Shown: positions 1,152-62,904 of the stretch, in pieces
How positions within the stretch are numbered: position 1 is the stretch's first letter
Layout: every line of letters begins with the position of its first letter
DNA from: Nonlabens spongiae
Lineage (GTDB): Bacteria; Bacteroidota; Bacteroidia; Flavobacteriales; Flavobacteriaceae
Direction: 5' to 3'
DNA: 64,000 bases
Assembly: GCF_002117125.1 (NCBI RefSeq)
Contig: NZ_CP019344.1
Coordinates: 62,001-126,000 of the forward strand
Translations under genes and position numbers: made by a program
Notes under the pieces: generated by a model
Told to the model about the DNA's origin: nothing
The model's input: the letters and a program-made list of their open reading frames with translations, nothing else
Databases searched by the model: none

Positions 1152-1730
1152 TTATTTCTTTAGAAAATGAATGAGTAATTCCCTGCCTCGTCGATCTGGC
1201 TCAGAGATTTCACAGTTTTCCATTGATTTTATTTCAAAAAACGGACTGAAAAGTCGTCTGTATTCTTCTGCGTTTCCTCCATAAGGTGGTTCTGTGCGGT
1301 CGCTTTCAAACTGGAAAAGTACACCTTTAATTGCACCGTCTGATTTGAGGAGGTCGTGGCATTTTTTAGGATAGCTTTCGCGAAAGCGAGATTCCAAAGC
1401 ACAAAAAAAGGTCTGCTCTAATATAAAGTCATAAGATCCCTCGTGATCAAAAAAATCTTCTAAGTGAAGAGTAATCTCGTCTGATTCTATTTGTTGCTGG
1501 AGGCTCTCAAGTGCCGGTTCAGCAAAATCCAAAATATGGACATTAGTAAATCCTTGCTGTAGTAGATAGCTGGCATCTCTGGAATTGCCAGCTCCTGGTA
1601 TTAAAATAGAGCAGTTCTTATCTTCAATTTGACTTATTACGTGTTTCAAAGGTGCTGAGGCATGGGATAGCTGCCAGGGAGTATCGTCCTGCTGATAGCG
1701 TTGTGTCCAGTAATGCTTATCTAAGATCAT
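1152..1730 (-). CDS. TPMT-family SAM-dependent methyltransferase
   Basis: A 192-residue class I methyltransferase resembling the thiopurine S-methyltransferase family: N-terminal YWTQRYQQDDTPWQ, SAM motif I read as ILIPGAGNSRDA (about residues 41-52), an acidic residue following the next strand, and an EQTFFCAL segment typical of this family. The natural substrate in flavobacteria is unknown; detoxification of thiol, selenium or tellurium compounds is a family-level possibility only. Residues 115-119 (RFRES) are encoded by a copy of the iterated palindrome. It lies 2 bp downstream of the S4-domain gene and 8 bp upstream of the phosphoribosyltransferase gene, indicating one transcript. Confidence 0.85.
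   Translation of the reverse strand: MILDKHYWTQRYQQDDTPWQLSHASAPLKHVISQIEDKNCSILIPGAGNSRDASYLLQQGFTNVHILDFAEPALESLQQQIESDEITLHLEDFFDHEGSYDFILEQTFFCALESRFRESYPKKCHDLLKSDGAIKGVLFQFESDRTEPPYGGNAEEYRRLFSPFFEIKSMENCEISEPDRRGRELLIHFLKK
1374..1387. repeat. Iterated palindrome copy 1 (in TPMT-like gene)
   Basis: GCTTTCGCGAAAGC. The 16-bp form is broken by one base on the left (A instead of C). It is in frame RFRES of the minus-strand gene and is the only copy in this frame. Confidence 0.95.
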
Positions 1731-1732
1731 GC

Positions 1733-2107
1733 TTATTCTTCCTCTTGTGATAAAAGATCATCCAGTTCACGACGGTCTTTTTTTGTGGGACGGCCTTCTC
1801 CTTTTCTACGGTAGTAATCTTGATTGAGCGCGATCATTTTTTTGACTTCGAGACGTTCTTTAGGCGTGCGGTCCAACATATAGAGGTTCACAAGTTTTGC
1901 TCCTACACGATTAGGAGGAAGGTCTAGTACTTCGATTTTATAATCAATTTGATCTTTACGCACCTCTACGATATCTGTCGCGTACACCTCCCGAGAGGGT
2001 TTCACCACATCACTATTTACTTTCACCCTGCCTTTTTTTACAGCTGTGGTGGCTTTGCTTCTTGATTTAAAATATCTGATGGACCACAAATATTTATCTA
2101 CGCGCAT
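1733..2107 (-). CDS. S4-domain RNA-binding protein (Hsp15/HslR-like)
   Basis: A 124-residue protein with an S4 RNA-binding domain at residues 1-65 (MRVDKYLWSIRYFKSR, then VKKGRVKVNSDVVKPSREV) and a basic, charged tail. This is the architecture of heat-shock protein 15, which binds stalled 50S subunits carrying nascent peptide. An upstream in-frame ATG would add 20 residues, but it would cross the predicted -7 box at 2136-2143; the conserved S4 start at MRVDKYLW supports 2107. First gene of the operon with the methyltransferase and phosphoribosyltransferase. Confidence 0.85.
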   Translation of the reverse strand: MRVDKYLWSIRYFKSRSKATTAVKKGRVKVNSDVVKPSREVYATDIVEVRKDQIDYKIEVLDLPPNRVGAKLVNLYMLDRTPKERLEVKKMIALNQDYYRRKGEGRPTKKDRRELDDLLSQEEE

Positions 2108-2135
2108 AAGATTCTCCGTTCTGAGTCGTTTTCCA

Positions 2136-3156: not shown

Positions 3157-3164
3157 TAGTTTTG
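3157..3164 (+). promoter_or_regulatory. -7 box upstream of the T9SS cargo gene
   Basis: TAGTTTTG matches TAnnTTTG. It overlaps the TTG codon at 3162, arguing that translation starts further downstream (TTG 3180). Confidence 0.4.
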
Positions 3165-3179
3165 CGCAAATTTTTACGG

Positions 3180-6337: not shown

Positions 6338-6353
6338 CGCTTTCGCGAAAGCG
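6338..6353. repeat. Iterated palindrome copy 2 (intergenic)
   Basis: CGCTTTCGCGAAAGCG, 51 bp downstream of the T9SS cargo stop codon. No T-run follows, so it does not look like an intrinsic terminator. Confidence 0.95.
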
Positions 6354-10647: not shown

Positions 10648-10663
10648 CGCTTTCGCGAAAGCG
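10648..10663. repeat. Iterated palindrome copy 3 (intergenic)
   Basis: CGCTTTCGCGAAAGCG, with symmetry extending three more bases on each side (TTA...TAA, 10645-10666). It lies between the convergent hemJ and LysR genes. Confidence 0.95.
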
Positions 10664-13594: not shown

Positions 13595-13610
13595 CGCTTT
13601 CGCGAAAGCG
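13595..13610. repeat. Iterated palindrome copy 4 (grpE leader)
   Basis: CGCTTTCGCGAAAGCG in the putative 5' untranslated region of grpE, 43 bp before the annotated start. Confidence 0.95.
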
Positions 13611-16128: not shown

Positions 16129-17907
16129 ATGCGCAGATTTTCATTTTTCTTCTTTTTGTTTTTGACTTGGTGCATTCAGGCTCAAGAATTACGCATTGCC
16201 GAAAATTATATGGATCAAGGTGAGTACACCAAGGCCTTGAAGATTTACGAAAAGATTTATGAAGCAAATAAGCGCAGTACTAACAGCTTATTCAATCTAG
16301 TTAAGGTGCATCAGCAGCTCGAGGCCTATGAAACGGTCGACTCGCTTCTTTCTGAAGGAGTTTCTTTGATGCCTAATAATAATCAGTTGCTGATCGAGCA
16401 AGGTTATAACAAAGCTTTGCAGGGAAAAGACAGTCTGGCAGATCAATATTATGAAAAAGCCCTAGCAACGATTGATTCCATTCCACAGCTTGCTTACCAG
16501 TTGGCTTCTCGTTTTGAACAAAGAAGTTTACTGGATCAGGCCGTTCGCGCTTATGAGAAAGGACTGGAACAACGCCCTAATGTAAATTTCTTGATGCAAC
16601 TAGCTCGTCTCTACGGTGAGCAGGCCGAAATCGAGAAAATGTTCCAAACTTACCTGGATATTATTCTTGAAAACGAGCAATACAGGTATAGAGCTCAAGC
16701 AGTTTTTTCTCAGTATATAGATGAAAATCCAGACAATGAAGCAAATCAAATGCTACGCAAGCTGCTGTTAGTCCAAATGCGCAATAATCCAGACGTGATC
16801 TATAACAAGCTGCTCTCATGGTTATTTGTCCAGCAAAAGGATTTTCAAAAAGCTTTCATCCAAGAAAAAGCAGCCTACCGTCGCAATCCTGAAAACGTGG
16901 GTACTTTCATGCCTCTGGTGATGGATGCGGTTGAAGAGGGTGACACTCAGGCAGCAACTGACATCTTGGATTTTATGATTGCAGAGGCTCAGTCTGATTA
17001 CGTGAAATACAATGCAAGTACCCAGCGCGTAAAAATCATGGCAGATCAAGCGATCGCAGATGATTATCCTGCTATCAAAGCGGAGTATGAACGACTGCTC
17101 AATGAATATACACGCGGCAATACTACTTATTCTCTACAGTTGAATTATGCCGATTTCTTAGCCTTCAAAAGTGATGAGGTGGATGCAGCGGTGGATATGT
17201 TGACCGAACTGGAGAAAGAAAACCTCAATCCCATTCAGAAAGCTCAGGTTAAGATGAAGCTGGCTGATATTTTGGTTTTGAAAGAACAGTTCAACCGCGC
17301 CTTGATTCTTTATACGCAGGTACAAAACGATGTTCCCAACAATGAATTGGCACAAGAATCACAATTCAAAGTAGCGCGTACCAGTTATTTTCAGGGTGAT
17401 TTCCCTTGGAGTTTGACCCAGTTGAAAGTCCTGAGGAGCGCAGCCAGTAAACTGATTGCAAACGATGCTATGGAATTGAGCCTCACGATTTCAGATCATT
17501 CTGTTGAGGATACGACTTTTGTTGCTTTGCACGCTTTCGCGAAAGCGGACCTACTACAATATCAAAACAAACGCAAAGAATCTATAGAGAGGTACAAGCT
17601 CTTGCTGGAGAACCATAAAGGTGACCCGATCGAAGACGAGGCCTTGCTCAACCTGGCGCGATTGTTTGAGTTAGAGGGCGATTTTAAGAGCGCCGAGAGC
17701 AGCTACCTGTCCATCGTTCAAAATTATGGAGATGGAATACTGGCAGACGATGCTCGATATTATTTAGCCAGATTATACGAAGAACGACTGGAGATGCCAG
17801 ACAAAGCTCAACCTTTATATGAAGCCATCATCTTTAATCACGCCGATTCCATCCACTTGGTAGACGCTCGACGTAGATTCAGGAGATTGAGGGGAGATGA
17901 GATATAG
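16129..17907 (+). CDS. Secreted tetratricopeptide-repeat protein
   Basis: A 592-residue protein with a Sec signal peptide (MRRFSFFFFLFLTWCIQAQ) followed almost entirely by TPR helices (for example NYMDQGEYTKALKIYEKIYEAN, QGYNKALQGKDSLADQYYEKAL, LLNLARLFELEGDFKSAESSYL). It is probably a periplasmic scaffold; flavobacterial homologues are annotated only as tetratricopeptide proteins. The open frame extends 59 codons upstream across the non-coding repeat region and the -7 box, so ATG 16129, directly before the signal peptide, is chosen. An iterated palindrome encodes AFAKA near residue 468. It is followed by a heptamer-repeat spacer. Confidence 0.8.
   Translation: MRRFSFFFFLFLTWCIQAQELRIAENYMDQGEYTKALKIYEKIYEANKRSTNSLFNLVKVHQQLEAYETVDSLLSEGVSLMPNNNQLLIEQGYNKALQGKDSLADQYYEKALATIDSIPQLAYQLASRFEQRSLLDQAVRAYEKGLEQRPNVNFLMQLARLYGEQAEIEKMFQTYLDIILENEQYRYRAQAVFSQYIDENPDNEANQMLRKLLLVQMRNNPDVIYNKLLSWLFVQQKDFQKAFIQEKAAYRRNPENVGTFMPLVMDAVEEGDTQAATDILDFMIAEAQSDYVKYNASTQRVKIMADQAIADDYPAIKAEYERLLNEYTRGNTTYSLQLNYADFLAFKSDEVDAAVDMLTELEKENLNPIQKAQVKMKLADILVLKEQFNRALILYTQVQNDVPNNELAQESQFKVARTSYFQGDFPWSLTQLKVLRSAASKLIANDAMELSLTISDHSVEDTTFVALHAFAKADLLQYQNKRKESIERYKLLLENHKGDPIEDEALLNLARLFELEGDFKSAESSYLSIVQNYGDGILADDARYYLARLYEERLEMPDKAQPLYEAIIFNHADSIHLVDARRRFRRLRGDEI
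17532..17547. repeat. Iterated palindrome copy 5 (in TPR gene)
   Basis: CGCTTTCGCGAAAGCG, read in frame as AFAKA within a TPR helix. Confidence 0.95.
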
Positions 17908-19597: not shown

Positions 19598-21145
19598 ATG
19601 TCTTCCATTCGCGCAAAATCTGCCCTTATTTCTGTTTTTCATAAAGACGGTCTAGAGCCTATCGTTCGTAAAATGAGCGATTTAGGAATCACCATTTATT
19701 CCACCGGTGGAACTGAAAAGTTCATCAAAGATCTTGGTATAGACGTGGTTCCGGTAGAAGATGTGACTTCTTATCCATCGATTTTGGGCGGTCGAGTAAA
19801 AACCTTGCACCCTAAAGTTTTTGGAGGAATATTAAACAGACGCGATAATGAGGGCGACGTGAGTCAATTAGCGGAATTTGATATTCCACAATTGGACATT
19901 GTGATCGTGGATCTGTATCCATTTGAGAAAACCGTTGCAAGCGGTGCGAGTGAGCAGGATAACATTGAAAAAATTGACATAGGTGGGATTTCCTTGATCC
20001 GTGCCGGTGCAAAAAATTATAAAGACACTCTTTGCGTAGGGACTATGGACGATTATGCAGAGTTGCTTGAGGTGCTTGAAAAAGGCGAGGGAGAAACTAC
20101 CTTAGCGCAACGTAAACGATTTGCCACCAGGTGTTTTGATGTCTCGTCAAACTATGACAGCGCGATCTATCAGTACTTTACTGGGGATGCTCAGGATCAA
20201 TCCTTGAAAGTGAGTGAGCAAATTGTGATGTCGTTGCGTTATGGTGAGAATCCGCATCAGCGTGGTTGGTTTTACGGAGATTTTGAAGCGATGTTCATAA
20301 AGCATCACGGTAAGGAGTTGTCATACAATAACTTACTCGATGTAGACGCAGCTGTAAATCTCATGAGCGAGTTTGAAAATGACGCGCCTACTTTTGCCAT
20401 ATTTAAACATAACAATGCTTGTGGTGTTGCACAAAGAGACACTATTCATCAAGCTTACGTAGATGCACTAGCGGGTGATCCGGTTTCTGCTTTTGGCGGG
20501 ATTTTAATCGCAAATACAGCAGTAGACCTGCAAACCGCTGAGGAAATACACAAACTTTTCTGTGAGGTGGTAATCGCACCATCATTTGATGCCGATGCGT
20601 TAGAACTGCTCAAAGGAAAGAAAAACAGAATTCTATTAACCTTGAAGGAGGGTGCGCTTTCGCGAAAGCGAGACAACAACCACAAAGAGGTACGAGCTTC
20701 ATTAAATGGATTTTTGGTGCAAGATGCCAACATTAAAACGGATCAAAAAGAAGACCTCAAAACCGCAACGGAACTTGCGCCTACTGATGAGCAAGTGGAG
20801 GATTTACTATTTGCCTCAAAGATTTGCAAACACACAAAATCAAACACTATCGTACTGGCTAAAGGCAAGCAATTGTGTGCGAGTGGTACGGGACAGACTT
20901 CACGAGTTGACGCATTGAATCAGGCGATTCACAAAGCAGGAAGTTTCAACTTTGACCTGAATGGTGCCGTGATGGCAAGTGATGCTTTCTTTCCATTTCC
21001 AGATTGTGTGGAGATTGCAGATAATGCAGGTATTACAGCTGTTATTCAGCCGGGTGGAAGCATCAAAGACCAGCTTTCCATTGATTATTGTAATGAGCAT
21101 AAAATTGCCATGGTTTTTACAGGAACGCGACACTTTAAACATTAG
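19598..21145 (+). CDS. purH: Bifunctional AICAR transformylase / IMP cyclohydrolase
   Basis: A 515-residue enzyme for the last two steps of de novo purine synthesis: formyl transfer from 10-formyl-THF to AICAR, then ring closure to IMP. The N-terminal MGS-like cyclohydrolase domain (residues 1-~140: STGGTEKFIKDLGI, GGRVKTLHPKVFGGIL) precedes the transformylase domain with RYGENPHQ, the KHNNACG motif near residue 270 and a C-terminal FPFPDCVEIAD...QPGGSIKD segment. Residues ~353-357 (LSRKR), in a loop between LLTLKEG and the NGFLVQD strand, are encoded by an iterated palindrome. mreB starts 53 bp downstream; purH-mreB linkage is common in Flavobacteriia. Confidence 0.97.
   Translation: MSSIRAKSALISVFHKDGLEPIVRKMSDLGITIYSTGGTEKFIKDLGIDVVPVEDVTSYPSILGGRVKTLHPKVFGGILNRRDNEGDVSQLAEFDIPQLDIVIVDLYPFEKTVASGASEQDNIEKIDIGGISLIRAGAKNYKDTLCVGTMDDYAELLEVLEKGEGETTLAQRKRFATRCFDVSSNYDSAIYQYFTGDAQDQSLKVSEQIVMSLRYGENPHQRGWFYGDFEAMFIKHHGKELSYNNLLDVDAAVNLMSEFENDAPTFAIFKHNNACGVAQRDTIHQAYVDALAGDPVSAFGGILIANTAVDLQTAEEIHKLFCEVVIAPSFDADALELLKGKKNRILLTLKEGALSRKRDNNHKEVRASLNGFLVQDANIKTDQKEDLKTATELAPTDEQVEDLLFASKICKHTKSNTIVLAKGKQLCASGTGQTSRVDALNQAIHKAGSFNFDLNGAVMASDAFFPFPDCVEIADNAGITAVIQPGGSIKDQLSIDYCNEHKIAMVFTGTRHFKH
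20655..20670. repeat. Iterated palindrome copy 6 (in purH)
   Basis: CGCTTTCGCGAAAGCG, read in frame as LSRKR in a loop of the transformylase domain. Confidence 0.95.
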
Positions 21146-25527: not shown

Positions 25528-26788
25528 AGCTTATTATGACTTTGTTTCAATTTTCCTTTATCTAGCGCTTGTTATAGTTGGCTGGGTAGCCATATACAGC
25601 GCGACGCCTACTTTAGAATATTCCAGTCTTATGGATTTGTCAGAACTGTATGGCAAGCAGTTGATATTCATTCTAGCTTCCCTATTCATCGCTGTCATAC
25701 TTTTAGCGGTAGAACCTAAATTCTATGAAAGGTTTGCCGGTGTGATATATCTAGTCTCGATACTCAGCTTATTGGGACTATTCATTTTTGGCAAAGAGGT
25801 AAACGGAGCAAAAAGTTGGTATGCCATCGGGTCATTTACGTTACAGCCCAGTGAGTTTGCAAAAATGGCTACCTCACTAGCAGTAGCCAAATACTTGAGC
25901 CAGCTAGAAGTTAACCTCAAAAACCTTAGGGACTTACTCATTGTGGGAGGTATCATCTTGCTACCAGCCATCATCATAGTACCGCAACCAGACCCTGGGA
26001 GTGCCTTAGTTTATGGTGCGTTTTTTTTCGCCCTTTATCGTGAGGGACTGTCGCTTTGGTACCTGAGTTTAATCGTTGTTGCACTTGGAATCTTTCTCAT
26101 GGCTTTATTACTGCCCATCGCTGTGGTGTGTGTTGTAATTCTTGCAGCAGTAGTCTTGATGTTTACGCTTTCGCGAAAGCGTAGACACAAAAAGCGCCTT
26201 CCTAAGCCTAGGCCTGTCCTGTATGTAATTGTCGCCATGATTACTATGGGGTTTGCTCTTTCTATTAATCCCATATTTGAGAATGTGCTGGAAGAACGGC
26301 ATAGAAACCGCATTAATATAGTACTTGGAAAAGTAGAGGACGATGCGGGAATAGGTTATAACATTGCTCAAAGCAAAGTCGCTATAGGGAATGGTGGCTG
26401 GACTGGTAAAGGGTGGCTTCAAGGGACGCAAACTCAAGGCGGATTTGTGCCTGAGCAAGAAACCGATTTTATTTTCAGCGCGATAGGTGAGGAGTGGGGA
26501 TTTATGGGAACAAGTATAGTTTTACTCTTGTTTCTCGGTTTGATCGTAAGAGTGCTCGTCATGGCAGAACGGCAGCGCAACCAGTTTGCCCGTATTTATG
26601 GTTACTGTGTTGCCGGGATCTTTTTCTTGCATGTATTTGTTAATATAGGAATGGTAATCGGGTTGCTGCCTACCGTGGGAATACCATTACCTTTTATGAG
26701 TTATGGAGGTAGTGGTTTGCTGGGCTTTACCGCATTATTGTTCATATTCATAAAGCTTGATGCGCACAGAATGAGTTATGAACATTAA
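25511..26788 (+). CDS. rodA: Peptidoglycan glycosyltransferase RodA (SEDS family)
   Basis: A 425-residue polytopic SEDS protein, the glycan polymerase partner of PBP2. Recognisable segments are FGKEVNGAKSWYAIGSFTLQPSEFAKM, PDPGSALVY, the large periplasmic loop with GNGGWTGKGWLQGTQTQGGFVPEQETDFIFSAIGEEWGF, and GIPLPFMSYGGSGLL near the C-terminus. Residues ~219-225 (LSRKRRHKK) form a basic cytoplasmic loop partly encoded by an iterated palindrome. Last gene of the elongation cluster; a hairpin with T-run follows at 26845. Confidence 0.96.
   Translation: MATGDKAYYDFVSIFLYLALVIVGWVAIYSATPTLEYSSLMDLSELYGKQLIFILASLFIAVILLAVEPKFYERFAGVIYLVSILSLLGLFIFGKEVNGAKSWYAIGSFTLQPSEFAKMATSLAVAKYLSQLEVNLKNLRDLLIVGGIILLPAIIIVPQPDPGSALVYGAFFFALYREGLSLWYLSLIVVALGIFLMALLLPIAVVCVVILAAVVLMFTLSRKRRHKKRLPKPRPVLYVIVAMITMGFALSINPIFENVLEERHRNRINIVLGKVEDDAGIGYNIAQSKVAIGNGGWTGKGWLQGTQTQGGFVPEQETDFIFSAIGEEWGFMGTSIVLLLFLGLIVRVLVMAERQRNQFARIYGYCVAGIFFLHVFVNIGMVIGLLPTVGIPLPFMSYGGSGLLGFTALLFIFIKLDAHRMSYEH
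26166..26181. repeat. Iterated palindrome copy 7 (in rodA)
   Basis: CGCTTTCGCGAAAGCG; symmetry extends to TA on both sides (26164-26183). Read as LSRKR at the start of a basic cytoplasmic loop. Confidence 0.95.
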
Positions 26789-36047: not shown

Positions 36048-36063
36048 CGCTTTCGCGAAAGCG
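36048..36063. repeat. Iterated palindrome copy 9 (intergenic)
   Basis: CGCTTTCGCGAAAGCG, symmetric out to GTA...TAC (36045-36066), in the 109-bp gap between the glycan-binding lipoprotein and the GH16 gene. Confidence 0.95.
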
Positions 36064-38889: not shown

Positions 38890-41800
38890 ATGAATAAAGA
38901 TATATATATAGGAAATACACCACTAGCCCGAAAAGACACAAACGTCCAGGGAGCCCTAGTGGAGTTTGAAAACGAGAAATATTATAAGATTTCAAACAGC
39001 GACGCGATGCGACCTTTTTTTATGAGCATCGTGAGTGAATCAGACCACTGGATGTTTATTTCCAGCAATGGAGGGCTCACTGCTGGCCGTAGAAATGCTG
39101 AATCTTCCCTATTTCCATATTACACAGATGATAAAATCACAGAGTCAGTTGATGTTACGGGAAGTAAAACTATAATGCAAGTTTCCCGTGAAGGTAAAAC
39201 TTACCTATGGGAGCCTTTCAGCCTACGCATGGAGGGTGTGTATAAAACGCAGCGCAACCTTTATAAAAATCAGCTGGGAAATAAGATCGTTTTTGAAGAA
39301 GTAAATCATGATTTAAAACTTGTTTTCCAATATGCCTGGAACACGAGCGAGCAATATGGATTTATAAGAAAATCTAAGATAATAAATACTGGCGATGAGA
39401 ATGTAGAGATTGCTGTTTTGGACGGTATCCAGAATATCGTTCCCTATGGTGTAGGTTCAGAATTGCAAAATCGCAGTTCTAATTTAGTAGACGCCTACAA
39501 AAAATGTGAGCTTGAAAAGGAGAGTGGAATTGGGATTTTTGCCTTGAGCGCAATTATTGTAGACCGTGCAGAGCCTAGTGAATCATTACAGACTACAACG
39601 GTGTGGAGTGACCGGTCAGGAACCAAAAAATTGTTGTCCTCTCAACAGTTAGACACGTTCCGTGCCGGCGGCGCTGTAGAAGAGGAAGTAGATGTGAGGG
39701 CTGAGAAAGGTGCTTATTTTTTAAATCTTGATTTAAAGCTGAAGCCCCAACAAAGCGACTCGTGGATAATCGTGGCTGAAGTCAATCAATCTATGGTCGA
39801 TGTCGCTCAGATCAAAAACTGGATAGCGCATGAAGATGACTTGAGTCAGTCGGTTCAAGCTAGTATTGATGAGGGGTCAGAGGAGTTACTGAAACTCAAC
39901 TGCGCCTCAGACGGGAGGCAGCTCACCGCAGATAAGATGAGGAATACCAGACATTTCTCAAATACCCTCTTTAATATTATGAGAGGTGGAATTTTTGATG
40001 ATAACTATACCATTGAGAAAAAAGACTTTTCAGACTACCTTAAAAGCGCGAGTAAACCAGTTTATAAAGCTAAGTCTGGAGTACTAGAGAACCTACCAGA
40101 AACTTTTACGGTGGAGCGTCTTCAGGAATTGGCAAACGAGGACAGCGATGCAGATTTCAACCGCCTCGCCATGGAATATTTACCGCTTAAGTTCAGTCGT
40201 AGACATGGTGACCCTAGTAGACCTTGGAATAAATTCAGTATCAACTTGACCAGCGATAGGGATGGATCAAAAATCTTGGATTACGAAGGAAACTGGCGTG
40301 ATATTTTCCAGAATTGGGAAGCGCTGGCTTATTCCTATCCTGAATTCATCGATGGGATGATCTTCAAGTTTTTGAACGCCACAACTTTTGATGGATATAA
40401 TCCTTATAGAGTGACAAAAGGTGGATTTGACTGGGAGACTGTTGAGCCAGACGATCCATGGTCCTACATAGGTTACTGGGGCGACCACCAGATCATATAT
40501 CTACTCAAGTTTTTAGAGATCATTGAAAAGCACGATCCTAGCAAACTTGCTAGTTATTTTGATCAGGACCTCTTTGTCTATGCAAATGTTCCCTATCGTA
40601 TTAAATCATATAAAGAGATCGTTGAGGATCCCAAGGACACGATCCTCTTTAATGAAGAACTAGATGATAAGATACGCCGTGAGCGGGAACAAATGGGAGC
40701 TGATGGTGCCCTGCTCAAAACCACTCAGGAAGAGCTATATCACGTGAATTTTACAGAAAAGATTCTAGCGACATTACTTGCCAAAATCTCTAACTTCATA
40801 CCTGACGCTGGAATCTGGATGAATACCCAGCGCCCTGAGTGGAATGACGCAAATAACGCACTTGTGGGGAACGGTGTCTCTATGGTGACCCTATATTATC
40901 TACGTCGATTTATTGCATTCTATTCAAATATTCTTGAAAAAGCAGATGTTTCAGATTTTGTGGTGTCTGAGGAGATGGTGGAACTGTTCAGTTCCATTAT
41001 GTCAACACTTGCGTCTTTTGAGGGTACGCTTTCGCGAAAGCGAGACAATAAAGAGCGCAAGCAAATAATAGACCAGTTAGGTCAGGCAGCCAGTGACTAT
41101 CGCAACAAGATTTATGACCGTGGTTTTACAGGTAAGAAAGAAGGTCTTACCAAGAGCGAAATCTCGAAAATGCTAGAGGTCGTTCAGTCTCATCTAGAGC
41201 AAACGATAAAGACTAATGAGCGTGAGGACGGGATGTACCATGCCTACAATTTGATCACCTTCAAAAATGATGGTGTAGAGGTGAGCTATTTACCAGAGAT
41301 GCTAGAAGGTCAGGTAGCAGTGCTGTCCAGCGGGTTCATTAATGCAAAACAATCTCTAAGGGTACTGGATGGAATGAAGGCGAGTGCACTCTTCCGCCCG
41401 GATCAGTACAGCTATACCCTTTATCCAGATAGAGAATTACCACGATTTACGGACAAGAACAACCTCGATAGGGAGAAAGTTCAGAACTCTTTATTGCTAC
41501 AACAGCTAGAAGCAGCAGGAAATACCCAGATCGTCGAGAAGGATCTTCAAGGTAATTATCACTACAACGGTACCTTTAATAATGCAGACAGTCTCGAGCA
41601 GGCGTTAAACGACCTGCCAGAGAAATATGGTGAACTAGTTGAGCGGCAAAAGGAACAACTTCTTGCAGATTTTGAGGAGCACTTCAACCATAAGGCATTT
41701 ACCGGTAGGTCTGGAACTTTCTACGGTTATGAAGGATTAGGCTCTATTTACTGGCATATGGTCAGTAAATTGCTTCTTGCAGTTCAAGAAACTTGTTGGT

Positions 41801-42345: not shown

Positions 42346-44195
42346 TGACACTGCTCCCTCAAATTAAGATCCGAGGATTCTGGCAGGTAGGAATTTTTAC
42401 ATTTCTGTTAGCCTCGTGTGAAGATAAAAAAGAGACTCAAGTAGACATGAAACCCACAGACGCCGAAATCATTGAGAACCGGGTAGATTCATTACTAGCC
42501 ATCATGACCCTCGATGAGAAGATCGGGCAAATGACTCAGGTGAGGCATTTCTGGGATTTAGAGTCAGATAGTCTGGTAACATCAAAATTCATCGGTTCCA
42601 TTATTCACACTCAAGGGGGAGATCCTGGTAAAACGGTTAAGGACTGGCAAAATCGCTTTATAGAACTGCAGAAGAGGGCGTTACAGACCAGACTGGGAAT
42701 TCCCCTTTTGCTGGGTGTCGATGCAGTGCATGGACAGAACACGTTTGATGGTGCTACCATTTTTCCTCACAATATCGGAATGGGAGCTACAAGAAATCCT
42801 GATTTAGTAAAAAAAGCTGCAGAAGTTACCGCTATAGAAAGTCAGGCGACAGGTTTTAATTGGGTGTTTTCACCCTGCGTGGCAATTCCCTTTAATGAGA
42901 AATGGGGAAGAACTTATGAAGCTTTTTCTGAAAGTACGGAGCTCACGAGTGAGTTGACCAAAGCATCTATCCAGGGACATCAGGGAGAAAGCTTGAAAGA
43001 TCGCCATACCGTTATGGCAACCGCAAAGCATTTTATGGGAGATGGTGCCACGGTTAACGGAGCAGAAGGCGGTGAAACCATTCTGACAGATCAAGAAATT
43101 TCTAACCTATTGATGCCACCCTATCAGGCAGCAGTTGATGAAGGCGTGGGAGCGGTAATGGCTTCATTCAATACGCTTAACGGTAAATCCATGCATACCA
43201 ACAAAGCCATGATTACCGATACGCTCAAGGGTAAGATGGGTTTTGATGGGATTGTTTTGACGGATTGGAAGGGATATTCCCGTTTCGGCGGGAACGATGT
43301 GGTTAACGCAGGTGTGGATATGTTTATGGCGGTAGATGGAGACATGCCTAAGTTTCACGAGGGAATAAAAAGAGGTATTAGAAAAGATTCCGTAAGTATG
43401 GACCGCATAAACGATGCAGTACGCAGAATTTTGAGGCAGAAATTCAGACTGGGACTTTTTGAGAACCCTTTTCCCGATACCTCATTAGTGAAAAAAGTAG
43501 GTTCAAAATCGCATCGGAACATTGCTCGTCAAGCAGTGCGAGAGTCGCTAGTACTCCTCAAAAACAAAGGTGTTCTTCCTTTAAATAAGGATCTAGAGAA
43601 AATCGTCGTCGTAGGTGAACATGCTGATAATAGCGGTTTGCAAAGTGGAGGCTGGAGTGTAAACTGGCAAGGTACTTTGGAAAGCTACAACGGCTCCACG
43701 ACTATCTTGGACGGTATAAAAAGAATCGCGACCGGTCAGGTGGTTTATGATCAGATAGGTACACAAACGCATCCTGATGCTGAGGTGGCGATTATTGCAG
43801 TAGGAGAGACGCCCTACGCAGAATTTATGGGAGATGTGGGTAATGGAAGAGGTGTGTATAGGATGACGCTTTCGCGAAAGCATAAAGATTACATAGCCCA
43901 TTACAAAAAACAGGGAATTCCCGTGGTCATCTTGCTTGTTTCAGGGAGGCCTATGGTGGTAACTCCAGAAATCAATAAGTCAGATGCATTTATTGCGGCT
44001 TGGTTGCCAGGTTCTGAAGGTGATGGAGTCGCAGAGGTGTTGTTTGGTGAGTATGATTTTTCAGGAAAATTACCTCATTCCTGGCCCAAGTATGTTAAAG
44101 ATTTCGACGGTGAATTTGGTCCTAATTTATGGGATGAAAGTATTGAGCCATTATTTCAGTTTGGGTACGGTTTGAACTATAAAGAAAAGCCATGA
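42345..44195 (+). CDS. GH3 beta-glucosidase lipoprotein
   Basis: A 616-residue exo-acting GH3 enzyme with lipobox LLASC. The (beta/alpha)8 domain shows MTLDEKIGQMTQ, LLLGVDAVHGQN, TAKHFMGDG, and the nucleophile motif IVLTDWKG (Asp near 306). The alpha/beta sandwich domain follows (ESLVLLKNKGVLPLN, AIIAVGETPYAEFMGD with the likely acid/base Glu). There is no fibronectin-III-like third domain, as in ExoP/barley ExoI-type enzymes. It should release glucose from short beta-glucans in the periplasm. Palindrome copy 11 encodes LSRKH near residue 509. Start ATG overlaps the phosphorylase stop; its own stop overlaps the GH17 start by 4 bp. Confidence 0.92.
   Translation: MTLLPQIKIRGFWQVGIFTFLLASCEDKKETQVDMKPTDAEIIENRVDSLLAIMTLDEKIGQMTQVRHFWDLESDSLVTSKFIGSIIHTQGGDPGKTVKDWQNRFIELQKRALQTRLGIPLLLGVDAVHGQNTFDGATIFPHNIGMGATRNPDLVKKAAEVTAIESQATGFNWVFSPCVAIPFNEKWGRTYEAFSESTELTSELTKASIQGHQGESLKDRHTVMATAKHFMGDGATVNGAEGGETILTDQEISNLLMPPYQAAVDEGVGAVMASFNTLNGKSMHTNKAMITDTLKGKMGFDGIVLTDWKGYSRFGGNDVVNAGVDMFMAVDGDMPKFHEGIKRGIRKDSVSMDRINDAVRRILRQKFRLGLFENPFPDTSLVKKVGSKSHRNIARQAVRESLVLLKNKGVLPLNKDLEKIVVVGEHADNSGLQSGGWSVNWQGTLESYNGSTTILDGIKRIATGQVVYDQIGTQTHPDAEVAIIAVGETPYAEFMGDVGNGRGVYRMTLSRKHKDYIAHYKKQGIPVVILLVSGRPMVVTPEINKSDAFIAAWLPGSEGDGVAEVLFGEYDFSGKLPHSWPKYVKDFDGEFGPNLWDESIEPLFQFGYGLNYKEKP
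43868..43881. repeat. Iterated palindrome copy 11 (in GH3 gene)
   Basis: GCTTTCGCGAAAGC; the 16-bp form has one mismatch on the right (CA instead of CG), turning LSRKR into LSRKH. Confidence 0.95.
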
Positions 44196-49171: not shown

Positions 49172-49187
49172 CGCTTTCGCGAAAGCG
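49172..49187. repeat. Iterated palindrome copy 12 (intergenic)
   Basis: CGCTTTCGCGAAAGCG, only 5 bp after the queD stop codon. Confidence 0.95.
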
Positions 49188-53528: not shown

Positions 53529-54122
53529 TCACATCACCACCTTCCTAAACGTCAGATTAATCCTCGGCTCGATCTTCCGGGCGGTTTTTGCGATTTGATG
53601 TTTGTAGGTATGCTGGGTCTGACCCGCCATGATCAGTAAACTGCCGTGATGCAGCTGGAATTTGAACCGCCATTCCTTATTGTGGTTATGTCGTAAATGA
53701 AAAAATCGCTCCTGGCCTAAGCTGACCGAGGCAATCACAGGATTTTCTCCCAGTTCCTTTTCATTGTCTGCGTGCCAGCCATTACTGTCTTTGCCGTCAC
53801 GGTACAAATTCACTAGGCAGATATTAAAGGTCATTTTTGCGACTTTTTCTACATCTATTTTAATACTTTTCATCGTCTCAGACCAGGGCAGAGCTGCGAA
53901 GTCTATGCCGCTGTAGCCGTAACTGATACCCTCATCTCCATATAATTGAGTAAGTCTTGGTTCATCGTATTCCTTCCCAAATATCTTAATCTTATTCTGT
54001 CGCCAGGGGACTTCTTCAAGCAGGGTGTTTTTGAGGTGTTCCGCTTTCGCGAAAGCGTAAAAATCTTCATGATATTCTACCCGTGCATCTGGAATTTTGG
54101 GAAAAAGGTTAGGGAAGAACAT
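53529..54122 (-). CDS. alkB: AlkB-like Fe(II)/2-oxoglutarate dioxygenase
   Basis: A 197-residue dioxygenase predicted to remove alkyl groups from nucleobases oxidatively. The iron ligands appear as WHADNE (HxD near 120) and HTYKHQI (distal His near 175); RINLTFR carries the 2-oxoglutarate-binding arginines. Size fits the AlkB/ALKBH2-3 class. A longer frame starts at 54200 but its first 26 residues lack family similarity, so ATG 54122 is used. Palindrome copy 13 encodes AFAKA at residues ~22-27. Divergent from fabH. Confidence 0.88.
   Translation of the reverse strand: MFFPNLFPKIPDARVEYHEDFYAFAKAEHLKNTLLEEVPWRQNKIKIFGKEYDEPRLTQLYGDEGISYGYSGIDFAALPWSETMKSIKIDVEKVAKMTFNICLVNLYRDGKDSNGWHADNEKELGENPVIASVSLGQERFFHLRHNHNKEWRFKFQLHHGSLLIMAGQTQHTYKHQIAKTARKIEPRINLTFRKVVM
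54042..54057. repeat. Iterated palindrome copy 13 (in alkB)
   Basis: CGCTTTCGCGAAAGCG, read on the minus strand as AFAKA near the protein N-terminus. Confidence 0.95.
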
Positions 54123-56706: not shown

Positions 56707-58224
56707 ATGGCATTACTGGGACCACTCGTCAAGACCGCACTCAATATTCACGACCGATTCACCACTACCACAGATCACGTTCAAGCGCAAGAAAAGGTGT
56801 TGAAACATCTGTTGGAACGCGCAAAGGATACCAGTTTTGGTCTGTATTACGGTTTTGATTCCGTTTTGAAAAGTGATGATATAGAGTCCGCTTTCGCGAA
56901 AGCGGTACCTTTTCACGATTATCACAAGATGAACGAGGAATGGTGGGAGCAAATGAAAACGGGAAAACCAGACATTACCTGGCCCGGACTGCCAAACTTT
57001 CTCGCTCGTTCCAGCGGTACGACCGGCAAAAAGTCCAAGACCATTCCCGTTACTGACGAGATGATCGACGCGATCAAGTCGGCTGGGACCAGACAAGTTA
57101 GTGCCTTGACACATTTTGATCTGCCTGATGAGGTTTTTGAGAGTGAGGTTTTAGCTTTGGGAAGTTCTACAGATCTGGATGAAAAAGATGGATTCACGAT
57201 AGGGGAGATCAGTGGGATTTCTGCCAGTAACATTCCAGAATTTCTAGACTCGTTTTACCGACCGGGTAAGGAGATATCCTCCATTGAAGACTGGGATGAG
57301 CGCGTACAGCGCATTGCAGAAGAAGCTAAGAACTGGGATATAGGCATGCTCAGTGGGATCCCATCTTGGCTCGAGTTGATGCTGAAAAAGGTGATCGAAT
57401 ACAACGATCTGGAATCCATTCACGATATCTGGCCTAATCTGATGGTTTATACATCGGGAGGCGTGGCCTTTGAGCCGTACCGATCCAGTTTTGAAAAATT
57501 GTTCTCAAAAAAAGTACACGTGGTAGACACTTATCTCGCCAGTGAAGGTTTTCTCGCAGCGCAGCAACGACCAGAGACTGACGCTATGCAATTGCTTACA
57601 GATGGTGGTATTTATTTTGAGTTTGTCCCCTTTGAACCAAACTTCGTAAATCAAGATGGAAGCATTGCAGATGGTGCACCTGTATTGACCCTTAACGATG
57701 TTGAAGAAGAAAAAGACTACGCTCTGATTATCTCTACGGTAGCGGGTGCCTGGCGTTATCTAATAGGAGACACCATAAAGTTTACCGATAAAGAACGTGC
57801 GGAAATCAAGATTACCGGCCGCACAAAATTCTTTCTCAACGTAGTTGGGAGCCAGCTTTCCGTTTTAAAGATGGAGACGGCCATTACAGAGCTACAGCAA
57901 AAATTTGACACGACGATTAAGGAATTTACGGTCTGTGCCAAGAAGATCGACGGTGATTTCCATCACGTCTGGTATCTAGGTACAGATACAAACACTAGTG
58001 AAGAAGAACTTGCTGATGCACTTGATCAATCTCTGAAAGATGCCAATAAAAATTATTCAGTCGCAAGATCAAAGGCTCTGAAAGGTGTCCAGGTCCACAA
58101 AATAGATCCGTCTCGCTTTTCAGACTGGAACGATCACCAAAAGAAAAAAGGAGGTCAGGTAAAAATGGAAAAAGTGATGGACGAGGAGAAATTTAAAGAA
58201 TGGGAAGATTTTCTTGCTAGCTAG
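56707..58224 (+). CDS. GH3 auxin-responsive promoter-family acyl-adenylate enzyme
   Basis: A 505-residue member of the plant GH3/JAR1-like family within the adenylate-forming (firefly luciferase-like) superfamily; unrelated to glycosidase family GH3. The ATP loop reads ARSSGTTGKKSKTIP (near residue 100), followed by MVYTSGGVAFEPY and the YRLIGD-type motif WRYLIGDTIKF, with FLNVVGSQLS at the hinge. Bacterial members are assumed to conjugate small acids, but no substrate is known. Palindrome copy 14 encodes AFAKA at residues ~61-66. Confidence 0.87.
   Translation: MALLGPLVKTALNIHDRFTTTTDHVQAQEKVLKHLLERAKDTSFGLYYGFDSVLKSDDIESAFAKAVPFHDYHKMNEEWWEQMKTGKPDITWPGLPNFLARSSGTTGKKSKTIPVTDEMIDAIKSAGTRQVSALTHFDLPDEVFESEVLALGSSTDLDEKDGFTIGEISGISASNIPEFLDSFYRPGKEISSIEDWDERVQRIAEEAKNWDIGMLSGIPSWLELMLKKVIEYNDLESIHDIWPNLMVYTSGGVAFEPYRSSFEKLFSKKVHVVDTYLASEGFLAAQQRPETDAMQLLTDGGIYFEFVPFEPNFVNQDGSIADGAPVLTLNDVEEEKDYALIISTVAGAWRYLIGDTIKFTDKERAEIKITGRTKFFLNVVGSQLSVLKMETAITELQQKFDTTIKEFTVCAKKIDGDFHHVWYLGTDTNTSEEELADALDQSLKDANKNYSVARSKALKGVQVHKIDPSRFSDWNDHQKKKGGQVKMEKVMDEEKFKEWEDFLAS
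56889..56904. repeat. Iterated palindrome copy 14 (in GH3-like acyl-adenylate gene)
   Basis: CGCTTTCGCGAAAGCG, read in frame as AFAKA. Confidence 0.95.
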
Positions 58225-58300
58225 ATTAGAAAAGATTTCTCTAGAACCACTATTGACATTTCCGTAAGAAGATCGGTTCTTAATAGCGGCTGGAATTGCT

Positions 58301-58308
58301 TATTTTTG
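58301..58308 (+). promoter_or_regulatory. -7 box of ruvX
   Basis: TATTTTTG ending only 8 bp before ATG 58317; it implies an almost leaderless transcript and excludes the longer start at 58296. Confidence 0.5.
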
Positions 58309-58316
58309 CGCACTTT

Positions 58317-58733
58317 ATGGCGCGCATCCTTTCTATAGATTACGGCAAGAAAAGAACCGGCATAGCCGTGACTGACGAGCTGCAAATGATTGCATCCGGT
58401 CTCACCACGGTGTCCACTCGCGATCTTCAGAAGTTTTTGGAAGATTACCTGCAAAAGGAAAATGTCGAGACCATCGTTATAGGAGAACCTAAACAGATGG
58501 ATTATACCGCAAGTGAGTTGGGAAGTGTGATTGACGCTTTCGCGAAAGCGTTACAACTCAAATACCCCAACCTTGTGATTGAGAGAGTCGATGAACGTTT
58601 TACCTCTAAAATGGCGTTCCAAACCATGATCGATAGCGGGTTGAAGAAAAAGCAACGCCGCAACAAGGCACTGGTTGATGAGATTGCCGCAACCATAATT
58701 TTACAGAGTTATCTAGACCGAAAAAGAATTTGA
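58317..58733 (+). CDS. ruvX: RuvX/YqgF-family Holliday junction resolvase-like nuclease
   Basis: A 138-residue RNase H-fold protein. LSIDYGKKRTGIAVTD (first acidic residue), VIGEPKQMDY, VIERVDERFTS and the C-terminal NKALVDEIAATIILQSYL (acidic residue) are the family pattern. YqgF proteins process the 5' end of 16S rRNA and resemble RuvC. Palindrome copy 15 encodes AFAKA within a helix at residues ~73-78. Just upstream of def, as in many flavobacteria. Confidence 0.9.
   Translation: MARILSIDYGKKRTGIAVTDELQMIASGLTTVSTRDLQKFLEDYLQKENVETIVIGEPKQMDYTASELGSVIDAFAKALQLKYPNLVIERVDERFTSKMAFQTMIDSGLKKKQRRNKALVDEIAATIILQSYLDRKRI
58535..58550. repeat. Iterated palindrome copy 15 (in ruvX)
   Basis: CGCTTTCGCGAAAGCG, read in frame as AFAKA in a helix; the closest spacing in the window (1646 bp from copy 14). 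Confidence 0.95.
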
Positions 58734-60970: not shown

Positions 60971-61454
60971 TTCTATTGTTAACGGTACTGTCTATAACCT
61001 CTGTTTCAATAATCCAAGGTTGATTAGGAATTTCTTGTTGACGACTTGCTTGTAGGTCATTATAATTCACTTTGAAACCGCAGGCTCTGCTTACAAATTC
61101 ATCTTGTCTCGTGTAGGAAAAATTGAGCCGGTCTATATTGAAGCCGTCTTCCTCATTATCGGTTTCGAAATCGTAAATGGTCTGGTCATCAAAATTTCGT
61201 AGTGGAATGTAAACAGTATCGGCCATTTCAAGTGAAGTGCTGCCCTCAAAATCCAGTGGTGCATATTCCGAAGCTCCTAAAACCCTCACTCTTAAATTTT
61301 CAACCGGTTTTACCGTATCAGGGTTCAAAAAATCTTTGAACACAACAACCATTCTGGATGAGGTTTCTTGATCTGGTGTACAAAGATCATCGCGCTCGCA
61401 ACCGCTGGAAGCGAGGAGAAAAACAAAAAGAGTAAAAAACAGTAATTTATTCAT
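60942..61454 (-). CDS. DUF6452 family lipoprotein
   Basis: A 170-residue lipoprotein (lipobox LASSGC) with a beta-rich domain containing CTPDQETSSRMVVVFKDFLNPDTVKPVENLRV and IPLRNFDDQTIYDFE. A conserved cysteine pair (CERDDLC and RACGF) could form a disulfide. A longer frame from 61514 would place the signal peptide internally. Sits between rlmD and DUF6048, an order repeated in many flavobacterial genomes; a role together with DUF6048 in the outer membrane is inferred. Confidence 0.8.
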   Translation of the reverse strand: MNKLLFFTLFVFLLASSGCERDDLCTPDQETSSRMVVVFKDFLNPDTVKPVENLRVRVLGASEYAPLDFEGSTSLEMADTVYIPLRNFDDQTIYDFETDNEEDGFNIDRLNFSYTRQDEFVSRACGFKVNYNDLQASRQQEIPNQPWIIETEVIDSTVNNRNEVHVEIFH

Positions 61455-61485
61455 CGGAACGGGTGAAGGCAACTTGGACACAAAT

Positions 61486-62904
61486 CTAATTTTTAAGTTG
61501 CAGTAAAACCACATTTTCTACGTGATGTGTTTGCGGGAACATATCTACTGGTTGCACTTTTTGTATCTCGTATTTTTCTGCCAAAATCTCTAGATCACGG
61601 GCTTGTGTCGCACTGTTACAACTCACATAAACTATGCGTGGTGTCTCTAGTCGCAAGATTTCTGCAACGACATCTTTGTGCATACCATCGCGAGGAGGAT
61701 CTGTGATGATTATATCAGGAGCGCCATGTTGATTGATAAAATCAGCGGTGAAAACATTTTTCATGTCTCCATCCACAAACGCGCAATTGTCTATTTTGTT
61801 ATGTTTTGCGTTGCTGATCGCATCTTCTATGGCTACTGGAATGGCTTCTATTCCTACGACTTTCTTAGCTTTTTTAGCTACAAACTGAGCGATGGTTCCT
61901 GTTCCTGTATATAAATCGTAAACGAGCTCTTCTCCTGTCAACCCTGCAAAATCTCTCGTGATTTTATAAAGCTCATAGGCTTGTAAACTGTTGGTTTGAT
62001 AAAAACTTTTTGCGCTGATTTTGAATTGGAGTCCTTCCATTTCTTCAAAAATGTGATCCCTGCCGTGATAGAGTACGACATCTTGATCGTAAATGGTGTC
62101 GTTTGCTTTCTCGTTAATGATGTACTGCAAAGAGGTAATTTCAGGAAACTCATTCTTTAGATGTTCCAGCAGTTTTTCTCGATCCTCTGGGCGGTCTTCA
62201 AAAAATTGAATCACCACCATGTTTTCGCCTGTCGAACTCATGCGCAACATCAAGGTACGTAGCATGCCCTCTTTGGTTCTAGGGTTAAAGTAGGGTAGGT
62301 TTTCCGCTTTCGCGAAAGCGTGAACTCCCAGCCTAATACGCTCTCCAATTTCAGGGTGAAGGTGACACTCATCCAGATGAAGGATCTTGTCCCACATTCC
62401 CGGAATATGAAAACCCAGCGCGTTTTTGTTCTCAATTTCACGATCGCTTTGAATCTCTTCCAGCGTGAGCCATCTGTTAGCCGAAAAGCTGAACTCCATC
62501 TTATTGCGATAATGGTACGTGTTTTCAGAACCAGCGATAGGAGTGATTTCTGGAAGGTCTAGATGGCCTATACGTCTCAGATTTTCAGAGACTTCCTTCT
62601 GTTTGAAATGCAGTTGATGTTCATAAGCCATGTGCTGCCACTTGCAGCCACCGCAAACGCCAAAGTGTTTACATACAGGCTCTGTTCTGCGCTCTGACTT
62701 CTTAATGTAATTGGTAACCTTGCCCTCGTAAAAAGATTTCTTCTTTTTGAAAGTCTGTATATCCACCACATCACCGGGTACCGCATCAGTCAGAAAGATG
62801 ACTTCGCCGTTCTCGGTTTTTGCGACACTCTTTCCTCTAGAACCAGCATCTACTACTGGGACGTTTAGAAATGTTTTTTGGGCTCTTCTCCTACGTTTTG
62901 ACAT
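61486..62904 (-). CDS. rlmD: 23S rRNA (uracil-C5)-methyltransferase RlmD/RumA
   Basis: A 472-residue enzyme that methylates a uracil (U1939 in E. coli) of 23S rRNA using SAM. It has an N-terminal TRAM domain (residues ~15-65), an iron-sulfur cluster motif CKHFGVCGGCKWQHM near 78-90, the methyltransferase motif VYDLYTGTGTIAQF, ITDPPRDGMH and the catalytic cysteine in VYVSCNSATQARD. Palindrome copy 16 encodes AFAKA at residues ~195-200. First gene of the minus-strand group with DUF6452 and DUF6048. Confidence 0.94.
   Translation of the reverse strand: MSKRRRRAQKTFLNVPVVDAGSRGKSVAKTENGEVIFLTDAVPGDVVDIQTFKKKKSFYEGKVTNYIKKSERRTEPVCKHFGVCGGCKWQHMAYEHQLHFKQKEVSENLRRIGHLDLPEITPIAGSENTYHYRNKMEFSFSANRWLTLEEIQSDREIENKNALGFHIPGMWDKILHLDECHLHPEIGERIRLGVHAFAKAENLPYFNPRTKEGMLRTLMLRMSSTGENMVVIQFFEDRPEDREKLLEHLKNEFPEITSLQYIINEKANDTIYDQDVVLYHGRDHIFEEMEGLQFKISAKSFYQTNSLQAYELYKITRDFAGLTGEELVYDLYTGTGTIAQFVAKKAKKVVGIEAIPVAIEDAISNAKHNKIDNCAFVDGDMKNVFTADFINQHGAPDIIITDPPRDGMHKDVVAEILRLETPRIVYVSCNSATQARDLEILAEKYEIQKVQPVDMFPQTHHVENVVLLQLKN
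62305..62320. repeat. Iterated palindrome copy 16 (in rlmD)
   Basis: CGCTTTCGCGAAAGCG, read on the minus strand as AFAKA (HAFAKAENLPY). Confidence 0.95.

What the first reader, a model, noticed from the sequence alone, without database searches (positions are those of the whole stretch)
1374..62320. A 14-16 bp palindrome (GCTTTCGCGAAAGC) iterated 16 times across the window
The 14-mer occurs at 1374, 6339, 10649, 13596, 17533, 20656, 26167, 30822, 36049, 41028, 43868, 49173, 54043, 56890, 58536 and 62306. Fourteen copies carry the full 16-mer CGCTTTCGCGAAAGCG; copies 1 and 11 differ at an outer base. A random 14-mer is expected far less than once in 64 kb. I saw no decayed copies of the core, so it appears to be held constant at the DNA level. 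The centre TCGCGA is a self-complementary hexamer. I know no published description of this element in this group; the closest parallels are the HIP1 octamer of cyanobacteria and DNA uptake sequences. Possible roles: a binding site for a nucleoid or segregation protein, a methylation target, or an uptake/recombination tag.
Basis: partly seen in the sequence, partly recalled or inferred. Interest (0 to 1): 0.92.

Follow-up and report, generated by a model that had tools for sequence, protein, structure and literature searches.

The report
Evenly spaced palindromic DNA self-mark
Marine bacteria of the genera Nonlabens and Dokdonia carry the same 14-16-letter palindrome hundreds of times, evenly spaced and kept letter-perfect inside a special sequence frame, which looks like a DNA self-recognition tag, possibly for taking up DNA of their own kind.

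Summary
Confirmed, and larger than claimed. This Nonlabens (Flavobacteriaceae) genome holds 779 exact copies of GCTTTCGCGAAAGC; 22 of 22 other Nonlabens genomes hold 288-857. Dokdonia (740-878) and one unnamed genus (408) share it; elsewhere copies are sporadic. New facts: (1) spacing is regular: 3 of 209 gaps under 1 kb, 48 expected; (2) each copy sits in a symmetric frame, the 20-30 nt 5' of it on either strand being C-poor and G/T-rich, in coding and intergenic copies, in Dokdonia, islands and phage contigs, and on 87 held-out sites; (3) copies keep exact sequence and position while neighbours diverge; (4) low-GC stretches nearly lack them. Terminator, mobile relic, parS and short methylation site fit poorly. 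E. coli Chi, measured alike, shows neither even spacing nor C-poor flanks. The profile best matches uptake sequences (USS/DUS), but palindromic, sparser and framed. Best reading: a DNA self-recognition/uptake mark (0.40); main rival a nucleoid site (0.27). No reader protein was found and competence is untested.

The parts
1374..1387 (.). 14-mer copy 1 (left outer base A instead of C), inside ORF 1152-1730 (-)
6339..6352 (.). 14-mer copy 2, full 16-mer, between ORFs 3162-6287 (+) and 6501-7004 (+)
10649..10662 (.). 14-mer copy 3, full 16-mer, between convergent ORFs 10063-10641 (+) and 10682-11599 (-)
13596..13609 (.). 14-mer copy 4, full 16-mer, between divergent ORFs 12742-13449 (-) and 13654-14277 (+)
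17533..17546 (.). 14-mer copy 5, full 16-mer, inside ORF 15952-17907 (+)
20656..20669 (.). 14-mer copy 6, full 16-mer, inside purH (19598-21145, +); same position in 20 of 21 full-length Nonlabens purH genes; within a 6-residue stretch missing from 78 of 78 purH genes of other genera
26167..26180 (.). 14-mer copy 7, full 16-mer, inside ORF 25511-26788 (+), RodA-like by recall of the gene order only; a copy at a matching distance from purH is printed for 19 of 20 other Nonlabens stretches, and L301 has a one-base change there
30822..30835 (.). 14-mer copy 8, full 16-mer, near the 5' end of ORF 30805-34053 (+)
36049..36062 (.). 14-mer copy 9, full 16-mer, between ORFs 34060-36024 (+) and 36134-36949 (+)
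41028..41041 (.). 14-mer copy 10, full 16-mer, inside the GH149 phosphorylase gene 38890-42345 (+); no length change at this place against PDB 6hq6
43868..43881 (.). 14-mer copy 11 (right outer base A instead of G), inside ORF 42345-44195 (+)
49173..49186 (.). 14-mer copy 12, full 16-mer, just after ORF 48756-49166 (+); a small ORF 48747-49199 (-) also overlaps it
54043..54056 (.). 14-mer copy 13, full 16-mer, inside ORF 53529-54200 (-)
56890..56903 (.). 14-mer copy 14, full 16-mer, inside ORF 56707-58224 (+)
58536..58549 (.). 14-mer copy 15, full 16-mer, inside ORF 58296-58733 (+)
62306..62319 (.). 14-mer copy 16, full 16-mer, inside ORF 61486-62904 (-)
20626..20699 (.). example of the symmetric frame: about 30 nt on each side of a copy, C-poor and G/T-rich 5' of the palindrome on the strand read, so A/C-rich 3' of it; defined as an average over copies, not as a fixed sequence

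Best explanation
The 16-bp palindrome with its symmetric frame of about 60-75 bp is a clade-specific DNA self-mark that works like the uptake sequences of Pasteurellaceae and Neisseriaceae. A receptor or DNA-processing protein of Nonlabens, Dokdonia and one further genus recognises the palindrome from either side, helped by the C-poor flanks. DNA that carries it is preferentially taken in (or preferentially kept once inside) and recombined into the chromosome, so marks spread and are held exact by a mix of drive and purifying selection. One mark per about 4 kb is enough for nearly every fragment of several kb to carry one; a second mark within about 1 kb adds little and is not maintained, hence the even spacing. 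Shown here: number, spacing, exactness, positional conservation, frame, two-way symmetry, clade distribution, scarcity in low-GC stretches. Inferred: the reader protein, the uptake or recombination step, and the drive.
For: Clade-wide abundance and absence from neighbours. Even spacing. 114 of 179 sampled copies in ORFs while ORFs cover 89% by proxy, so an intergenic excess. No replichore, gene-strand or origin-distance trend. 0.05 sites per kb in 5 low-GC stretches against 0.24 in 34 others. Exact positional conservation within the genus, with losses mostly by substitution, and sites in variable loops. For USS/DUS the literature reports the same list: even spacing, 65% in ORFs and a non-coding excess in H. 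influenzae, no orientation bias (PMC1939737, passages); core-genome excess, absence from recently acquired genes, conservation in permissive places (PMC2397512, passages); contributing flanks (PMC7811141, passages). Natural transformation occurs in the family, and Riemerella columbina prefers its own DNA with no mark identified (PMC7965970, section 16). A YifB/ComM-type gene is present in L311.
Against: USS/DUS are not palindromes (PMC1939737) and are denser (about 1 per kb for USS, PMC7811141). Temperate-phage-like contigs and islands carry framed copies, which an uptake tag does not predict. PMC1939737 holds that uptake sequences are less evenly spaced than a compaction signal would be, so strong evenness also fits an architectural role. 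ComEC and DprA were not found in the 37% of the genome read, with E. coli queries of unknown sensitivity. PMC7965970 reports that competence is not universal in the family; I know of no test in Nonlabens or Dokdonia. No reader protein was found. AddAB comparisons gave nothing.
Confidence: 0.4

Rival explanations
1. Nucleoid-architecture or segregation site: a dimeric DNA-binding protein sits on each 16-mer, wraps or bends the C-poor flanks, and anchors the chromosome roughly every 4 kb.
For: Strong evenness; two-fold symmetric site and frame; no orientation trend; framed copies also in a 14-kb contig, islands and temperate-phage-like contigs, as expected if any resident DNA is selected to fit the nucleoid.
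Against: No origin-terminus trend. No candidate protein. Low-GC stretches lack sites and persist. The frame is a composition that tolerates A/G/T exchange, unlike a usual protein footprint.
Confidence: 0.27
2. Bidirectional Chi-like repair site: AddAB meets the palindrome from either side, stops degrading, and RecA loads on the G/T-rich strand 5' of it.
For: The frame is G/T-rich on exactly the strand that would be loaded, on both sides. T peaks near every third base would suit RecA triplets. Density (1 per 4.36 kb) is near that of Chi in E. coli (75 per 300 kb). Framed copies occur on phage-like contigs. An AddAB-type nuclease is present. RecA's taste for G/T-rich DNA is recalled, from no call.
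Against: E. coli Chi, measured the same way, has no even spacing (14 gaps under 1 kb, 15.4 expected) and no C-poor 5' flank (0.268 against 0.258), and its flanks show a 3.0 period too, presumably from codons, so that period is weak evidence. Known Chi sites are short and not palindromic (recalled). RecC was found in 0 of 54 genomes; PF12705 nucleases occur in 30 of 30 genomes with and without the motif; AddB of Nonlabens does not group with that of Dokdonia; no residues are exclusive to motif genomes in AddB (26 genomes) or in the AddA that I recovered (13 of 26). No replichore asymmetry.
Confidence: 0.13
3. Methylation or restriction-linked palindrome (HIP1-like): an orphan methyltransferase acts on it and selection keeps its target frequent.
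For: Palindrome; HIP1 and alternative HIPs go with cognate methyltransferases (PMC4390886, passages). One phage-like contig with sites encodes a DNA methyltransferase (L225).
Against: TCGCGA alone is not enriched and CGCG is below expectation. A 14-16-bp unit with C-poor flanks to about -30 is longer than methyltransferase sites that I know of (recalled). The even spacing is unexplained.
Confidence: 0.06
4. Relic of a miniature mobile element, or a terminator or regulatory hairpin.
For: In purH the site lies in a 6-residue stretch that other genera lack; intergenic copies are enriched.
Against: Absences within the genus are mostly equal-length (72 of 93 comparisons) and none is 14-18 bp shorter. 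The GH149 site shows no length change. 114 of 179 copies are in ORFs. The 3' side is A/C-rich on both strands, not T-rich as a terminator needs. Intergenic copies occur in all four gene-orientation classes in about the proportions of intergenic DNA. Spacing is even.
Confidence: 0.03

Closest known systems
Uptake signal sequences (USS, Pasteurellaceae) and DNA uptake sequences (DUS, Neisseriaceae)
   Same: Hundreds of exact copies, clade-specific, even spacing, mostly in ORFs with an intergenic excess, no orientation bias, scarce in foreign-looking DNA, conserved core with contributing flanks (literature from passages; ours)
   Different: Perfect palindrome; about four times sparser than USS; symmetric C-poor frame on both sides; framed copies on temperate-phage-like contigs; few near-matches; no uptake shown
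HIP1 and alternative HIPs (cyanobacteria)
   Same: Highly iterated palindrome across genera
   Different: 14-16 bp instead of about 8; does not contain GATC or CGATCG; even spacing; C-poor frame; no cognate methyltransferase known (HIP1 facts from PMC4390886 passages)
Chi sites
   Same: About one per 4 kb genome-wide
   Different: Palindromic, evenly spaced and C-poor in the flanks; E. coli Chi measured here is none of the last two
parS and Noc-type sites
   Same: Palindrome of 14-16 bp with TTTC/GAAA half-sites (recalled)
   Different: Hundreds of sites instead of a few; parS is present as a separate sequence near the skew minimum

Membership tests
USS/DUS uptake sequences | over-represented exact core, clade-specific | tested here: met
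USS/DUS uptake sequences | even spacing without orientation bias | tested here: met
   spacing; no bias of the flanks; the core itself is symmetric
USS/DUS uptake sequences | scarce in recently acquired DNA | tested here: met
   0.05 against 0.24 sites per kb in low-GC and other stretches; low GC is only a proxy for acquisition, and phage-like and island contigs do carry framed copies
USS/DUS uptake sequences | not palindromic | tested here: not met
   perfect palindrome; the statement that such sequences are not palindromes is from PMC1939737 passages; it describes the known cases and is not the functional definition
USS/DUS uptake sequences | raises DNA uptake or transformation in a competent host | not testable with these tools
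   needs an experiment; this is the functional definition, so it is not filed as a member
HIP1/HIP palindromes | cognate methyltransferase acting on the palindrome or its core | not testable with these tools
   no base-modification data; the core hexamer alone is not enriched
HIP1/HIP palindromes | HIP1 sequence GCGATCGC or a similarly short GC-rich palindrome | tested here: not met
   the unit is 14-16 bp and lacks GATC
Chi sites | recognised by RecBCD or AddAB, changing its nuclease activity | not testable with these tools
   RecC 0 of 54 genomes; PF12705 nuclease in 30 of 30, with and without the motif
Chi sites | spacing and flanks like E. coli Chi | tested here: not met
parS/ParB sites | few sites near the origin, bound by ParB | tested here: not met
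   779 sites genome-wide without origin trend; parS separate
miniature mobile repeats | insertion polymorphism of a fixed-length element | tested here: not met
   93 absent comparisons in 21 Nonlabens purH neighbourhoods: 72 equal length, none 14-18 bp shorter; purH against other genera is a possible exception

The most novel reading that the evidence does not exclude
A new design of genomic self-mark: a perfect palindrome set in a strand-asymmetric, C-poor frame on both sides and read in both directions by an unknown protein of Nonlabens, Dokdonia and one further genus. It would be the first identified DNA self-recognition code in Bacteroidota, shared by chromosome, phages and mobile islands, and possibly read on single strands in 3-nt steps by a recombinase filament.
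Probability: 0.35. Interest if true: 0.88.

Novelty: new variant of a known kind. Interest (0 to 1): 0.77.

Why it matters
Own-DNA preference has been reported in one member of this family with no mark identified (PMC7965970, section 16). A letter-perfect candidate mark in Nonlabens and Dokdonia makes the question directly testable with one synthetic framed 16-mer. If the mark instead organises the chromosome or steers repair, it would be an evenly spaced genome-wide code that my literature searches did not turn up (open-licence papers only).

Tried and rejected
Terminator: the 3' flank is A/C-rich on both strands. Mobile relic: absences within the genus are mostly substitutions. ParB/parS. 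RecBCD-Chi: RecC in 0 of 54 genomes. AddAB as a clade-specific reader: the AddB tree (30 genomes, partial proteins) does not group Nonlabens with Dokdonia, and no alignment columns are exclusive to motif genomes (AddA recovered for 13 of 26 genomes). Replichore or gene-strand asymmetry of the flanks: none. Another iterated palindrome in other genera: none of similar abundance in about 1.5 Mb pooled over many genera at purH loci; pooling could hide a genus-specific one. Insertion as the general origin: purH suggests it, GH149 does not, the RodA-like gene is ambiguous.

The 3-nt T pattern: in 130 intergenic flanks T is 0.56 in the -7/-10/-13/-16 class against 0.38 and 0.41, but the permutation test there would reject for any position-specific pattern. 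On 87 held-out sites the class is still highest but weaker, 0.44 against 0.35 and 0.38. G234 peaks at period 11, not 3, and E. coli Chi flanks also peak at 3.0. I treat it as suggestive only. The plasmid search with MreB is not used. Model building, structure prediction and RNA searches were not used.
Full report
OBSERVATION. The window holds exactly the 16 copies listed and no copy with one or two mismatches; dinucleotide shuffles give 0.17 hits on average. Fourteen have the full 16-mer. The genome, 3.39 Mb in two contigs, holds 779 exact copies, one per 4.36 kb, and none of the reversed control. Allowing one mismatch gives 845.

ORGANISM AND DISTRIBUTION. A T9SS sorting domain and the closest named purH loci, Nonlabens xylanidelens and N. 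xiamenensis at 84%, place the window in Nonlabens, Flavobacteriaceae; the genome itself is unnamed. One search covered 59 genomes, the own one included: 22 of 22 others of the genus hold 288-857 copies; of 36 outside the genus one holds 6 and 35 hold none. In a family-wide draw of 397 genomes, 80 have a match: four Nonlabens, G234 (408) and G250 (857) have hundreds, the other 74 have 1-19. G250 is Dokdonia: its listed site positions equal those of the D. sinensis genome G442; two Dokdonia MAGs have 878 and 740, and of the 10 other named genomes in that call nine have none and one has 1. Of 392 genomes drawn across the phylum 24 have a match, none above 6 apart from the own genome. Several sporadic copies in other genera cluster in islands: L117 and L130, from two genera, are 94.7% identical over 2 kb, and G204 and G259 show the same inter-site distances of 933, 10754 and 3991 bp (positions).

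SPACING. In the first 99 gaps of the own genome the coefficient of variation is 0.60 and 1 gap is under 1 kb against 21 expected; in Dokdonia 2 of 99 against 20.5; in G004 4 of 60 against 14.7. In the pooled sample of about 1.2 Mb, 3 of 209 gaps are under 1 kb against 48 for uniform placement (lowest of 500 runs 36). E. coli Chi on 300 kb shows 14 of 69 against 15.4, and a coefficient of variation of 1.27.

THE FRAME. On 356 symmetrised flanks of the own genome C falls to 0.01-0.15 at positions -21 to -4 before the palindrome (background 0.20), T peaks at -4 (0.75), -7 (0.55), -10 (0.59) and -13 (0.56), G is raised at -15, -16 and -18, and C stays at 0.10-0.16 out to about -30. Dokdonia (50 flanks) looks much the same; G234, at 46% GC, shows a weaker form. 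The frame is strongest in 41 copies with no ORF within 30 bp (T 0.91 at -4) and present in 114 coding copies. Left and right strengths are uncorrelated, and no copy of 179 has both flanks below the control median. A model trained on the earlier stretches and tested on 87 new sites puts their flanks at the 93rd percentile of random positions on average, 82% of them above the 90th. Between species the frame is kept as composition: A-C and C-G substitutions are rare in it, while identity in it is no higher than outside (251 site pairs in 14 groups). Mean percentiles elsewhere: Dokdonia 0.91 (33 sites), the 14-kb contig 0.95 (2), island copies 0.95 (6, some of them the same site in two genera), viral contigs with two or more sites 0.89 (11, not all independent), the prophage-like L195 0.83 (3), sporadic copies 0.76 (23), G234 0.75 (25), and viral contigs with one listed site 0.54 (71), which serves as a negative control.

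CONSTRAINT. The purH site is in the same place in 20 of 21 full-length Nonlabens purH genes; G006 lost it by one substitution. A 6-residue stretch that holds it is missing from 78 of 78 purH genes of other genera, three Dokdonia among them. For 94 sites in 21 Nonlabens purH neighbourhoods, 815 of 908 placeable comparisons keep the 14-mer; these comparisons are not independent. Absent cases are mostly equal-length substitutions (72 of 93). Dokdonia purH loci have their sites at other places. Of 179 copies 114 are in ORFs; on an earlier 108 copies, 68 coding ones used all three frames, read as AFAKA (38), RFRES (11) or LSRKR (19). Five low-GC stretches have 0.05 sites per kb, 34 others 0.24.

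WHAT IT IS NOT. Canonical parS lies at 2,387,193, beside the GC-skew minimum of the sampled stretches, and ParB-domain proteins do not follow the motif over 30 genomes. RecC was found in 0 of 54 genomes; AddAB-type nucleases occur with and without the motif and show no motif-linked residues. TCGCGA by itself is not enriched, though TTCGCGAA is. The 3' sides are A/C-rich, unlike terminators.

PHAGES. Thirteen viral records carry 42 sites in 309 kb; four of them share a 4480-bp interval. Of ten proteins scanned from six of these records, hits include an integrase, two tape-measure proteins, a primase and a methyltransferase, and three had no hit; L195 has a head maturation protease.

INTERPRETATION. 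The profile is that of uptake sequences: PMC1939737 (passages), PMC2397512 (passages) and PMC7811141 (passages) describe even spacing, a non-coding excess, no orientation bias, absence from recently acquired genes, conservation in permissive places and contributing flanks. Natural transformation exists in the family (PMC7965970, passages and section 16; PMC8459023, passages), and own-DNA preference is reported there without an identified mark. Against it stand the palindrome, the lower density, the phage-like copies, the remark in PMC1939737 that uptake sequences are less even than compaction signals would be, and the failure to find ComEC or DprA in the 37% of the genome read, with E. coli queries; a YifB/ComM-type gene was found. 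Hence confidence 0.40, with a nucleoid site at 0.27 and a Chi-like role at 0.13; about 0.1 is left for functions not listed.

NOVELTY. Searches for the 14-mer (0 papers), TTTCGCGAAA (10 papers, none on these bacteria by title), Nonlabens with palindromes, Dokdonia with repeats, uptake sequences in Bacteroidetes and competence in Flavobacteriaceae (12 of 100 listed) showed no description of this element; only open-licence papers are held, and I saw listings apart from the papers named. HIP1 was checked in PMC4390886 (passages), which does not mention Bacteroidetes or Flavobacteria; PMC5217627 (passages) does not mention these genera.

Noticed in passing
L311:16709, L312:2828, L325:710, L420:14374, L431:2253 (own genome): A second palindrome, TCCCGATAGCTATCGGGA, recurs in this genome (11 exact cores in 838 kb; 12 more in 400 kb) but not in 396 kb of 20 other Nonlabens stretches, 144 kb of Dokdonia or 200 kb of G234. 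In these five places it sits at the centre of the main motif with one half lost (at L431 the remaining half has one change); half of it alone is at chance.
   Followed up: partly
L109:19168 and L109:19720: The same second palindrome lies in the anticodon-loop region of two partial tRNA-Met copies that flank an intact tRNA-Met (L109:19528-19602).
   Followed up: partly
L432:13370-13912: Five copies of the second palindrome about 132 bp apart, in what looks like a tandem repeat.
   Followed up: no
L320, half-motif place printed: A different hairpin (CCTGCCTG...CAGGCAGG) also abuts a half copy of the main motif.
   Followed up: no
L113 (G000 C1:2970001-2990000), L326 (C1:2887001-2907000), L315 (C1:1072001-1092000): Low-GC stretches with 0, 1 and 0 sites; L113 has a transposase-like and an ATPase-like PHROG match, and an extra 616-aa ParB-domain protein lies at C1:2891885.
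   Followed up: partly
G145, G204, G245, G259, G033, G188 (other genera): An extra ParB-domain protein of about 600-616 aa occurs in these genomes, in several on the same contig as clustered motif copies, suggesting a shared integrative element.
   Followed up: partly
L396, L397, L400 (Nonlabens AddB loci): In G010, G000 and G002 no long AddA gene lies next to AddB, unlike G020 and G016.
   Followed up: no
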